This document shows positions 1,855-5,716 of a stretch of 34,242 nt of DNA, piece by piece (the stretch's first letter is position 1; each line of letters starts with the position of its first letter). Position numbers and translations under genes: made by a program. Source of the DNA: Gammaproteobacteria bacterium (GTDB lineage: Bacteria > Pseudomonadota > Gammaproteobacteria > GCA-001735895); the NCBI GenBank assembly GCA_024224415.1, contig JAAENK010000174.1, positions 1 to 34,242 of the forward strand. The letters run 5' to 3'. The notes below the pieces were generated by a model that worked only from the letters and a program-made list of their open reading frames with translations, was not told the DNA's origin and made no database searches.

Positions 1855-2316
1855 TTACTTAACCAAATCAATCTTGTTGTCACGAAAATTAGCTAGTTCT
1901 TTCAGCTTTTGTGTTGAAGATTCCAGATGCATGAAAGAATCAATTCGAGGTAGCGGCTTCCAATTACCTGCATAGCCCAGCGCTATCGCTTTGCCGAATG
2001 CCTGGTCTGCTTCTTCAAGACGATTTAAGTGGTAATAAGATTTTGACAGTAAAATCCAGCCGTTTACATCGTCTTTTTGTGTTTCTAATCGTTGCTTTAG
2101 TCTGCTTATCAAGACATTAACTGATTCGAGCCTCTTTGTAGGCTTTTGAGTTTTTGATGTGGGCGTTTCAATCTCAGAGGTTGCTAGTTGCATTATTAAA
2201 AAATAGCCACCCAGGGCAGCTAGTACAATAACCACAAAGATTGGCAGTTTAAGCTTATTGGGATAACCATTACTCAAGGATGCTGACCCTATCAAATAGG
2301 TGAAGATTGAAAACAA
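1855..2316 (-). CDS. Small membrane-anchored TPR protein (CcmH/NrfG-type TPR region)
   Basis: 153 aa from an apparent TTG at 2316; no ATG is available before residue 41, so the exact start is uncertain. Residues about 24-43 form one hydrophobic segment (KLPIFVVIVLAALGGYFLI). A Thr/Lys-rich linker and a soluble domain (about 65-135) follow. The domain carries the pattern LISRLKQRLETQKDDVNGW followed by ILLSKSYYHLNRLEEADQAF, which resembles the TPR pattern of CcmH/CcmI and NrfG cytochrome c maturation proteins. The N-in/C-out topology would put the TPR in the periplasm. It is divergent from the giant multihaem lipoprotein across 142 bp. A chaperone role for that apocytochrome is attractive but is inference from position and TPR type only. 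Confidence 0.6.
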   Translation of the reverse strand: MFSIFTYLIGSASLSNGYPNKLKLPIFVVIVLAALGGYFLIMQLATSEIETPTSKTQKPTKRLESVNVLISRLKQRLETQKDDVNGWILLSKSYYHLNRLEEADQAFGKAIALGYAGNWKPLPRIDSFMHLESSTQKLKELANFRDNKIDLVK

Positions 2317-2458: not shown

Positions 2459-5400
2459 ATGCAAATTTTGCTTGCTCAGAGAATGACTCAAAAAATTTGT
2501 GGTTACCTGATTACAGTCATGCTTGTGGTAGCTCTGGCAGGTTGTGGTGAGAGGTCAGGTGAAGAAGATACCGATGTAGTCAATCCGGCACCATCGACAG
2601 ACACAGGTGACTTTGTTGTAGCCAGAGTGGGACCTATCCTTGCTATAAGAGTTGGGGAGACAGCCAGTTTAAGCGAGCAAAATTCCTATACCTTGTCGAC
2701 CGAACCATTGAGCTTCAGCTGGTCTTTTGTGCATAAACCGGATGCTAGTGATGCTGAATTGTTCAATGCCAGTTCGGCTAATCCCAGTTTCATTGCCGAT
2801 GCCAGAGGTACTTACATGGTGCAACTGGTGGCCAGTGCCGAAGGCGTTTCCAGTCAGCGCGTAATACAACAAGTCATGGCTACTATTGCGCCGGAACGCC
2901 CCACCGGGCCATGGAATCATCAGGGGCTGTCGTCGAATTGTGGGCGCTGTCATAATGATGGTTTTGTTGATATTGAAAGTAAATCACAGAATCATCTTGC
3001 AACCAGTAATACTTGCGAAACCTGTCACACGACTCTTGGTTTTGACCCGATTCCTTTCACTGATCATATTGAAGTGTTTGGAAATTGTAGTGAGTGTCAT
3101 AATAATGTGCTGGCTATCGGGAAATCGGAGTTTCATACATCCACGAATGCCGAATGCAATGAGTGTCATGGCACCGATTCCTTCCTGGAGCTGGAGTTAG
3201 ATGGCGGATTTGACCATTCGGGTATTACCGGTACCTGCTCTGGTTGTCATAATGGGACTGTGGCTATAGGTAAGACGCCTGGCGTCGACGACATTCCGCC
3301 TGGTACCCATCCGTACACCGTCACTGAATGCGGTGTTTGTCATACTACTGTCAGTTTTGTGAATGCCTATCCCGATCATACCGGCCCAGATGTCGTGGGT
3401 GCTAGATGCGATTCCTGTCATGGGTCTTCGGCTCAGGGAGAACCGAGTGGGCATCCAGCAATGGCCGTCGATTGTGATACATGCCATGGCATCGTGACCT
3501 TCAGTCTTGGTGGTGTGTTTAATCACCGCATTGACCCCACCGTACTTAGCTGTGAGACCTGTCATACCGAGCCTAATAGTTTAAATGCAACCGGAAAAAC
3601 ATCGACTCACACTGAAACTACTGCAGATTGTGGCTTGTGCCACAATACCGAGACCTTCAACTCTGCATTTGTAGATCATACTGATTTAACTGACAGGTGC
3701 GACTCTTGTCATAGTTTACCGGTGGATACTACATTATATGCTCACATGCCGATTACGACCGAGGATTGCGATGTCTGCCATACCCCAGGCATATTTAGCA
3801 CCGGCAGCTACGATCATGCCGGGGTTGTAAGTGGTTGTGCAACTTGTCACGATGACAGGATCAGTGTCGGTAAGCTTTCGAACCATTTTCCGACAATCCC
3901 CGATTCGCAGGATTGTATTGACTGTCACAGCACTACAACGTTTGTCGGTGCGACATTCGATCACCTGGGCATCACGGGTAATGATTGTGCATCTTGTCAC
4001 AACGGTACTTACACAACGACGAGTAACTCACTCTACGGCAAGCCGGGTAGTCATTTACCGACGACCCAGGACTGTAGTTTCTGTCATGCTACCGGCGTGG
4101 ACTTCTCGCCGGCTTCGAACTTTAGCCACGTGGGCATAACCGCTCAATGCGAGACCTGTCACAACGGAGGCTCAGTTTATGTTGAGGCTGGTGCAGTAGG
4201 GAAGAAGGACAATCATATCCCTGCACTGAATGATTGCGTCGATTGTCATGTAGATACCAGTTCGGGTGGGTTTGCATCGACGACAATATTTCTTGGCACA
4301 GTCCATGCGACCACTACCCATGGCTGCGAAGGCTGTCATACCAGCCATATCTTTCCCGACTTACCGCTGATTAAAGCTGCGGATCATTTGCCAGTAAGTC
4401 AGGATTGTTACGTCTGCCACAATATCAATACGTTCGCAGCACCGACAACAATGCTTGCTCACACAGGTATCACCGGTAATTGTATCTCTTGCCATGATGG
4501 TAGCTTTGTCGGAGTAGGCGCCAGAGCGAAAACGTCTTCTACGTCTCACCCAGTAACCACAGAAGATTGCGCCGTATGCCATAACACGACTAATTTTGCC
4601 GATGCTTTTGTCGACCATAACAACCCTGCTGTGCTAGCCGTTCGATGCGATTCCTGCCATGGCGTTACAGCAACAGGTAAAGATGCCATATCGGATCATG
4701 TTGCTACCACGCAAGATTGTGGTACCTGTCACGCAGCCGGGGCTAGCTTTTCGCCTGCGGTGTTTGATCATAGCGGTATCGTTGACAACTGTGCGTCTTG
4801 CCATGATGGAATTATTGCAACCGGAAAGGATGCCAGGACTAACCCTGCGCATATACCGACCAGCGAGGATTGCTCGGTGTGTCATGTACCCACCACATTT
4901 GCACAGGCATATTTCGACCACCAGAATATCGCGGATAATTGTGGTAACTGTCACGATGGCACTACTGTGTTCGGCAAACACAGTAGTCATGTACCAACCA
5001 ACGAAGATTGCGTCGGTTGTCACCAAACCACGGGTATTCTGCCAGCAACATTTTCTCATGATGGCATCCTGGATAACTGTTCTTCCTGTCATGATGCCGG
5101 TTTCGCTACGCCGAAGGATGCCGATCATGTCGAGACAGGCGAGGATTGTGGTGTTTGCCACACTCCTAACGCATTCATCCCCGCGACCTTCGATCATACA
5201 GGTATTGTGGATAACTGCGCCTCCTGTCATGGTGTTACCGCGACGCCCATGCCGGGCGATCATTTGACAACCGGCCTGGATTGCCATTTCTGCCATACCA
5301 CTGCAACTTTCGTGGGTGGAACCTGGATGCACGACTCAGGTAACGCTGGAAACTGTGACACCTGTCATAACCCGAGTGGTGGGGCAACTTCTAAACCAGG

Positions 5401-5716
5401 TTATCACCTGCCCACAACCGAACAATGTGATGTGTGTCATACTACAAACGCCTGGGCCCCAGCTAATTTTAACCACAGTTCCTCAGGTGACTATCCAGGA
5501 GATCATAGACGAGATCCGGGTTGTACCGGTTGCCATGGCACTATCCCGGATGTTGACTGGGGATGGTCGCAATACGCTCCGGACTGTGCTGCCTGCCATG
5601 CGGGTGACTTCGAAAGCGAGGGAGACCACATTGGCGGCAAAAGTGGAACCATTTCGCAGAACAGGGATTGTGGCAGGAGCGGCTGCCATAGAGTTAGCGA
5701 CAGGGATTTTGATTAG
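2459..5716 (+). CDS. Giant multihaem c-type cytochrome lipoprotein with 36 CXXCH motifs plus one CX4CH
   Basis: 1085 aa. Residues 1-28 are a lipoprotein signal with lipobox LAGC; Cys29 is followed by Gly, not Asp, so outer-membrane sorting is expected. ATG at residue 9 (2483) would give a more usual signal peptide. Residues about 50-143 look like an Ig/PKD-type beta domain (SFSWSF, GTYMVQLVAS). From Cys161 to the end I count 36 CXXCH motifs and a final CGRSGCH (CX4CH, 1071-1077), about 25 residues per haem. Two repeat flavours tend to alternate: DHxGIxxNCxxCHDG and HxPTxxDCxxCH. 27 motifs have a His exactly seven residues before the first Cys, and eight more have one at 6-10, which suits bis-His ligation. 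The likely role is periplasmic, surface or extracellular electron transfer; partners are unknown. No porin or other cytochrome gene is adjacent. Confidence 0.9.
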   Translation: MQILLAQRMTQKICGYLITVMLVVALAGCGERSGEEDTDVVNPAPSTDTGDFVVARVGPILAIRVGETASLSEQNSYTLSTEPLSFSWSFVHKPDASDAELFNASSANPSFIADARGTYMVQLVASAEGVSSQRVIQQVMATIAPERPTGPWNHQGLSSNCGRCHNDGFVDIESKSQNHLATSNTCETCHTTLGFDPIPFTDHIEVFGNCSECHNNVLAIGKSEFHTSTNAECNECHGTDSFLELELDGGFDHSGITGTCSGCHNGTVAIGKTPGVDDIPPGTHPYTVTECGVCHTTVSFVNAYPDHTGPDVVGARCDSCHGSSAQGEPSGHPAMAVDCDTCHGIVTFSLGGVFNHRIDPTVLSCETCHTEPNSLNATGKTSTHTETTADCGLCHNTETFNSAFVDHTDLTDRCDSCHSLPVDTTLYAHMPITTEDCDVCHTPGIFSTGSYDHAGVVSGCATCHDDRISVGKLSNHFPTIPDSQDCIDCHSTTTFVGATFDHLGITGNDCASCHNGTYTTTSNSLYGKPGSHLPTTQDCSFCHATGVDFSPASNFSHVGITAQCETCHNGGSVYVEAGAVGKKDNHIPALNDCVDCHVDTSSGGFASTTIFLGTVHATTTHGCEGCHTSHIFPDLPLIKAADHLPVSQDCYVCHNINTFAAPTTMLAHTGITGNCISCHDGSFVGVGARAKTSSTSHPVTTEDCAVCHNTTNFADAFVDHNNPAVLAVRCDSCHGVTATGKDAISDHVATTQDCGTCHAAGASFSPAVFDHSGIVDNCASCHDGIIATGKDARTNPAHIPTSEDCSVCHVPTTFAQAYFDHQNIADNCGNCHDGTTVFGKHSSHVPTNEDCVGCHQTTGILPATFSHDGILDNCSSCHDAGFATPKDADHVETGEDCGVCHTPNAFIPATFDHTGIVDNCASCHGVTATPMPGDHLTTGLDCHFCHTTATFVGGTWMHDSGNAGNCDTCHNPSGGATSKPGYHLPTTEQCDVCHTTNAWAPANFNHSSSGDYPGDHRRDPGCTGCHGTIPDVDWGWSQYAPDCAACHAGDFESEGDHIGGKSGTISQNRDCGRSGCHRVSDRDFD

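What the first reader, a model, noticed from the sequence alone, without database searches (positions are those of the whole stretch)
2459..5716. Lipoprotein with 36 CXXCH haem motifs plus a C-terminal CX4CH
Seen directly: 36 canonical CXXCH motifs and one CGRSGCH between residues 161 and 1077 of a 1085-aa lipoprotein, about one haem per 25 residues. This is a very high haem count for a single gammaproteobacterial protein, set alone among housekeeping genes. The PKD-like N-terminal domain and lipobox suggest tethering at the outer membrane. A chain of this length could span the periplasm or form a conductive fibre.
Basis: partly seen in the sequence, partly recalled or inferred. Interest (0 to 1): 0.85.

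Follow-up and report, generated by a model that had tools for sequence, protein, structure and literature searches.

The report
37-haem surface lipoprotein of PCC3 conduits
This gene encodes an unusually long molecular wire: a lipoprotein that should carry 37 haems, always 37 in its close relatives, and that most likely sits on the outside of the cell and passes electrons to or from an outer-membrane electron conduit whose other genes lie elsewhere in the same genome.

Summary
In detail: 1085 aa, lipobox, PKD domain, 36 CXXCH plus a terminal CX4CH. It is not an orphan. In related genomes the gene ends a one-direction operon: inner-membrane cytochrome b-like protein, 21-haem cytochrome, 9-haem cytochrome, outer-membrane barrel, this lipoprotein, CcmI-like chaperone. 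That cluster meets the published features of the "PCC3" porin-cytochrome conduit, including the inner-membrane protein signature. In this genome the PCC3 cluster is on another contig with a 13-haem cytochrome, and the lipoprotein sits beside a short divergent CcmI-like gene. All 13 complete relatives aligned have exactly 37 haem sites, and 37 non-motif histidines are conserved, one about 7 residues before nearly every motif. So all haems are probably bis-His and the protein is a conductor, not an enzyme. The PCC3 slot cytochrome in the same genomes varies from 9 to 50 haems. A Thiodiazotropha version has 71 sites, as expected from doubling a 34-haem array before one 3-haem cap. Best reading: surface conductor (MtrC-like role) of a PCC3 variant. 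High haem numbers in PCC3 are already known; new are the lipoprotein/PKD design, the fixed 34+3 number, the chaperone partner and the dispersed gene. Surface exposure and electron direction are inferred.

The parts
2459..5716 (+). 37-haem PKD-domain lipoprotein (1085 aa)
   Evidence: 36 CXXCH + CX4CH; Pfam Cytochrome_C7 in 19 stretches (E 1.4e-46).
2459..2545 (+). signal peptide with lipobox LAGC, lipidated Cys29, Gly at +2 (no inner-membrane retention Asp; outer-membrane sorting inferred). The start codon could also be the ATG at 2483
   Evidence: Sequence; lipobox present in nearly every relative with an intact N-terminus.
2606..2893 (+). PKD domain, residues 50-145
   Evidence: PKD domains of KIAA0319L and KIAA1837; Z 11.9, 92 residues aligned, 2.1 A.
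2918..5440 (+). regular array of 34 haem units, His about 7 residues before each CXXCH, residues 154-994
   Evidence: a conserved His 7-10 residues before each of motifs 1-34, 7 in most.
5456..5713 (+). C-terminal 3-haem cap (YPGDHRRDPGCTGCH...APxCAACH...CxnCH), shared with capped PCC3 slot cytochromes
5669..5689 (+). terminal CX4CH haem site (CGRSGCH, residues 1071-1077); CX4CH or CX6CH in relatives, invariant C/C/H
   Evidence: 16 of 16 rows that reach this column.
1855..2316 (-). short divergent CcmI-like membrane-anchored TPR protein (153 aa; lacks the C-terminal Ig-like CycH domain of most relatives); putative apocytochrome chaperone
   Evidence: Pfam TPR_CcmH_CycH E 8.5e-8, below the curated cut-off; 42-58% identical to the TPR protein next to the lipoprotein in 7 relatives.

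Best explanation
The gene encodes the extracellular, outer-membrane-anchored electron conductor of a PCC3-type porin-cytochrome conduit. Proposed path: quinone pool - inner-membrane di-haem b protein - 21-haem periplasmic cytochrome - 9- or 13-haem cytochrome inside the outer-membrane barrel - 37-haem lipoprotein on the surface - mineral, metabolite, electrode or partner cell. The PKD domain next to the lipid anchor positions the chain at the barrel or surface; 34 evenly spaced bis-His haem units form a wire; the 3-haem cap is the terminal contact. The neighbouring CcmI-like protein presents this exceptionally haem-rich apoprotein to the Ccm machinery. Shown here by computation: motif count, conserved histidines, PKD fold, operon in relatives, PCC3 signature, co-occurrence. 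Inferred: haem loading, surface exposure, physical contact with the barrel, chaperone role, electron direction.
For: 37 sites in all 13 complete single-unit relatives, and 37 conserved non-motif His, each conserved in at least 94% of rows. Nearly uniform His-motif spacing. One-direction operon IMP-21haem-9haem-barrel-lipoprotein in G021, G024 and G009, with the CcmI-like gene last in G021 and G024. Same genus: all 9 genomes with the PCC3 IMP carry the lipoprotein and 20 genomes have neither (9/2/0/20, Fisher p 2.7e-6). Barrel found in 14 of 17 further genomes fetched with this family. IMP: two WX3HX13H and SGXXG in all 19 examined, five predicted TM segments in most. Barrel model is strand-rich and its Foldseek matches are mostly outer-membrane barrels. 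PDB profile hits are MtrC, MtrF, MtrA. Ccm present.
Against: In G000 itself the lipoprotein is not in the PCC3 cluster, and that cluster already has a capped 13(+1)-haem cytochrome, so the two may not form one complex here. The haem domain could not be modelled (pLDDT below 50). A lipobox does not prove surface exposure. The barrel was not found in 3 of 17 genomes (MAGs). Shared ancestry inflates the Fisher test. Barrel model confidence is only moderate (mean pLDDT 58.5).
Confidence: 0.68

Rival explanations
1. Periplasm-facing outer-membrane lipoprotein that bridges the periplasm to the inner membrane.
For: Outer-membrane lipoproteins face inward by default; a ~37-haem chain would be long enough (inference). 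In G000 the PCC3 cluster already has its own capped cytochrome.
Against: The same operons already encode a 21-haem cytochrome for that role (role proposed in PMC10734462). In operonic relatives the barrel slot cytochrome is a capless 9-haem form and only the lipoprotein carries the cap. PKD domains are typical of exposed proteins (general knowledge).
Confidence: 0.14
2. Polymerising extracellular cytochrome nanowire, like OmcS/OmcE/OmcZ.
For: High haem density and a long regular array.
Against: Lipid anchor and globular PKD domain at the N-terminus; fixed length with a terminal cap; no sequence match to filament cytochromes in the PDB profile search.
Confidence: 0.06
3. Mainly an electron store (capacitor) rather than a wire.
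For: 37 haems could hold up to 37 electrons; a capacitor role has been proposed for PCC3 cytochromes (PMC10734462).
Against: Operon placement next to the barrel and a fixed array with cap suggest connection; the two roles are not exclusive.
Confidence: 0.09
4. Cys motifs bind zinc or form disulfides, not haem.
For: None beyond motif ambiguity.
Against: CXXCH with a partner His for each, Pfam cytochrome families, Ccm genes, CcmI-like neighbour.
Confidence: 0.01

Closest known systems
PCC3 porin-cytochrome complex (He et al. 2017, PMC5566968; Gallionellaceae survey PMC10734462)
   Same: Barrel, 21-haem periplasmic cytochrome, IMP with WX3HX13H x2 and SGXXG, extracellular cytochrome of very high haem density and repeat structure.
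   Different: Here an additional or replacement extracellular cytochrome is a PKD-domain lipoprotein of constant 37 haems with a CcmI-like partner, often encoded away from the cluster. The main text of the 2017 paper does not contain the words lipoprotein, PKD or CcmI; its supplementary tables could not be read.
MtrC/OmcA surface decahaem lipoproteins (Shewanella Mtr)
   Same: Lipid-anchored cytochrome thought to meet a barrel-cytochrome pair; profile-level similarity of haem repeats.
   Different: 37 haems instead of 10; OmcA/MtrC model TIGR03507 far below cut-off (79.9 of 209.3 bits); no MtrB/PioB barrel found in G000.
OmcS/OmcE/OmcZ cytochrome nanowires
   Same: Multihaem conductor.
   Different: No sequence match found; lipid anchor, PKD domain and cap instead of a polymerising subunit.

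Membership tests
PCC3 | periplasmic multihaem cytochrome, ~21 haems | tested here: met
   G000:C137 5649-7223, 21 CXXCH; 21 in most complete related clusters examined.
PCC3 | IMP of ~300 aa, five TM helices, WX3HX13H in TM3 and TM5, SGXXG in TM4 | tested here: met
   All three motifs in G000 and 18 other IMPs; crude hydropathy gives five TM segments in G000.
PCC3 | outer-membrane beta-barrel porin gene in the cluster | tested here: met
   C137 8386-10509; the model of a homologue has ~19 long C-terminal strands and Foldseek matches to outer-membrane barrels; moderate confidence.
PCC3 | cytochrome with high haem number and 22-39 residues per haem | tested here: met
   37 sites, 29.3 residues per site.
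PCC3 | that cytochrome is extracellular | not testable with these tools
   Lipobox and Gly at +2 suggest the outer membrane; the side is not decided by sequence.
PCC3 | extracellular cytochrome encoded in the same cluster | tested here: inconclusive
   Met in G021, G024, G009; in G000 the lipoprotein is on another contig, and the cluster has a 13-haem one.
PCC3 | demonstrated extracellular electron transfer | not testable with these tools
   Needs a cultured organism.
MtrCAB / OmcA-MtrC family | TIGR03507 score above cut-off | tested here: not met
   79.9 bits, cut-off 209.3.
MtrCAB / OmcA-MtrC family | MtrB/PioB barrel (PF11854) in the genome | tested here: not met
   None found in G000, an 87% complete MAG.
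DmsE/MtrA family decahaem cytochromes | TIGR03508 score above cut-off | tested here: not met
   118.5 bits, cut-off 192.2.
OmcS/OmcE/OmcZ nanowires | sequence or fold relationship to filament cytochromes | tested here: inconclusive
   No hit in the PDB profile search; haem domain not modelled.

The most novel reading that the evidence does not exclude
A fixed-length molecular wire: a 34-unit regular haem array plus 3-haem cap whose length is held constant by selection, in contrast to the freely varying PCC3 slot cytochromes, and which can be lengthened by doubling the array (71 = 34+34+3 in a Thiodiazotropha). Wire length would then be a selected property set by its partners or by the distance to the electron partner.
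Probability: 0.3. Interest if true: 0.72.

Novelty: new variant of a known kind. Interest (0 to 1): 0.56.

Why it matters
PCC3 conduits are known almost only from gene clusters. A lipoprotein with a constant, probably fully bis-His 37-haem array gives a defined single-chain object for testing how bacteria build long-range electron wires: what fixes their length, how dozens of haems are attached to one chain, and whether a dedicated chaperone is needed. The carriers are mostly uncultured Gammaproteobacteria; this genome has RuBisCO and a dsrA-like gene split over two contigs, so the wire may link sulfur-based autotrophy to extracellular electron exchange.

Tried and rejected
AlphaFold2 of the whole protein: only the PKD domain is confident; the haem domain is below pLDDT 50, so no haem geometry is claimed. 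phmmer of the single sequence against the PDB gave only weak hits. Strict exclusivity between the lipoprotein and a long capped slot cytochrome was tested and rejected: several carriers have both. Insertion at tRNA-Val/thrS: tRNA-Val-thrS is conserved while the DNA 5' of it differs between genomes, but no integrase or att repeat was looked for, so no mobile element is claimed. Separate origin of lipoprotein and slot caps: the tree separates the two groups in 61% of bootstrap trees (57/86 support), suggestive only. The 77- and 81-site forms do not fit exact doubling, so exact doubling is claimed only as the arithmetic of the 71-site form. Foldseek search of the barrel did not list MtrB; not taken as evidence either way. 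The PCC3 literature search is limited to open-access papers.

Full report
Observation. window:2459-5716 (+) encodes 1085 aa with 36 CXXCH and a terminal CGRSGCH. Only Cys14 and the lipobox Cys29 lie outside these motifs. Shuffled sequences give at most 3 CXXCH in 1000 trials. The window is the whole contig G000:C174 of a 3.07-Mb, 347-contig, 87% complete MAG.

Anatomy. Signal peptide and lipobox LAGC, then a PKD domain (residues 50-145; Pfam hits across relatives; Z 11.9 to solved PKD domains), then the haem region. A conserved His stands 7-10 residues, mostly 7, before each of motifs 1-34; the last three motifs form an irregular cap. Thirteen complete single-unit relatives, 50% or more identical in the alignment, all have exactly 37 sites: in three of them (L049, L052, L053) one CXXCH has become CX4CH, and the terminal site is CX4CH or CX6CH. 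Leaving out five poorly conserved His and the terminal motif His, exactly 37 non-motif His are conserved, each in at least 94% of rows. The simple reading is 37 bis-His haems and no open catalytic site. This is inference from sequence; no structure of the haem region could be obtained.

Context. In G021, G024 and G009 the gene ends a one-direction cluster: IMP, 21-haem cytochrome, 9-haem cytochrome, barrel, lipoprotein, with a CcmI-like TPR gene downstream in G021 and G024. In G000 the corresponding cluster is on C137 (IMP, 21-haem, 13-haem with its own cap, barrel) without the lipoprotein, which lies in the window next to a shortened, divergent CcmI-like gene, 42-58% identical over its aligned part to those of 7 relatives. 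G025 has the same short divergent CcmI-like neighbour, and its IMP cluster is on a different contig. Other carriers have the lipoprotein at other loci, for example beside hisG/hisD-like genes in G021, G024, G013, G018 and G006 (those gene names are read from the sequences, not searched).

Distribution. In 31 same-genus genomes 9 have both the IMP and the lipoprotein, 2 fragmented genomes have only the lipoprotein, none has only the IMP, and 20 have neither (Fisher p 2.7e-6; shared ancestry is not corrected for). A scan of 84,980 species genomes gave 38 loci, the close ones almost all Gammaproteobacteria MAGs including a Candidatus Thiodiazotropha; two close loci carry Nitrospira/Nitrospirota record titles. 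The PCC3 barrel was found in 14 of 17 of the further genomes searched.

Identity of the system. The cluster matches PCC3 (PMC5566968): barrel, 21-haem periplasmic cytochrome, cytochrome with 22-39 residues per haem (here 29.3), and an IMP whose WX3HX13H pair and SGXXG motifs are present in G000 and 18 others. It is not Mtr by family cut-offs, though the profile of the lipoprotein finds MtrC, MtrF and MtrA as nearest solved structures.

What is different. The PCC3 slot cytochrome in genomes around this family varies widely (9, 13+1, 19, 19+1, 31, 47+1, 49+1 sites), whereas the lipoprotein stays at 37. Outside the 37-site group there are 33-site forms (L066, L069) and long forms with 71, 77 and 81 sites. 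The 71-site form equals 34+34+3, and BLAST shows two near-complete copies of the array. In G021, G024, G009, G013, G006 and G005 the slot cytochrome is a capless 9-haem form, so the lipoprotein supplies the cap; but several carriers combine the lipoprotein with a capped slot cytochrome, G000 among them, so this is not a rule.

Function. Best explanation: surface conductor of a PCC3 variant, MtrC-like in role, confidence 0.68. Direction is open: this genome has RuBisCO and a dsrA-like gene in two pieces whose scores sum to more than the cut-off although neither reaches it alone, compatible with lithoautotrophy using either electron uptake or electron discharge.

Verdict. New variant of a known kind. 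High haem number alone is not new for PCC3; the lipoprotein/PKD design, constant 34+3 array, chaperone partner and dispersed gene are the new points, as far as the open-access literature searched shows.

Noticed in passing
L135:4984-14808 (G069:C131; genome of loci L067 and L069, isolate Ww183): A complete 3274-aa ORF with 129 CXXCH motifs and a Gly/Met-rich tail, above the 85 sites named as the largest in PMC5566968; two further ORFs in the same genome have 79 and 51 sites (L136).
   Followed up: partly
window:25700-25922: rpsB (30S protein S2) ends in a Lys/Ala/Thr-rich repeat tail, (KKAAT)n, about 50 residues.
   Followed up: no
window:5793-5919: tRNA-Val-thrS order is conserved in the relatives examined, but the DNA 5' of tRNA-Val differs between genomes; here it is the cytochrome gene.
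   Followed up: partly
L034:1402-4706 and relatives: An FAD/4Fe-4S pyridine-nucleotide oxidoreductase and a Sel1/ankyrin-repeat protein with a signal-like N-terminus are divergently encoded next to the PCC3 IMP in many of the genomes examined; role unknown.
   Followed up: partly
L029:11021-17239: G035 carries a 2072-aa, 77-site double form in addition to a normal 37-site copy (L028).
   Followed up: yes
L050, L055: Two close lipoprotein loci lie in MAGs titled Nitrospirota/Nitrospira; could be transfer or mis-binning.
   Followed up: no
L041:4508-5984: G013 has a second, partial and more divergent lipoprotein copy (about 50% identical) at a contig end.
   Followed up: partly
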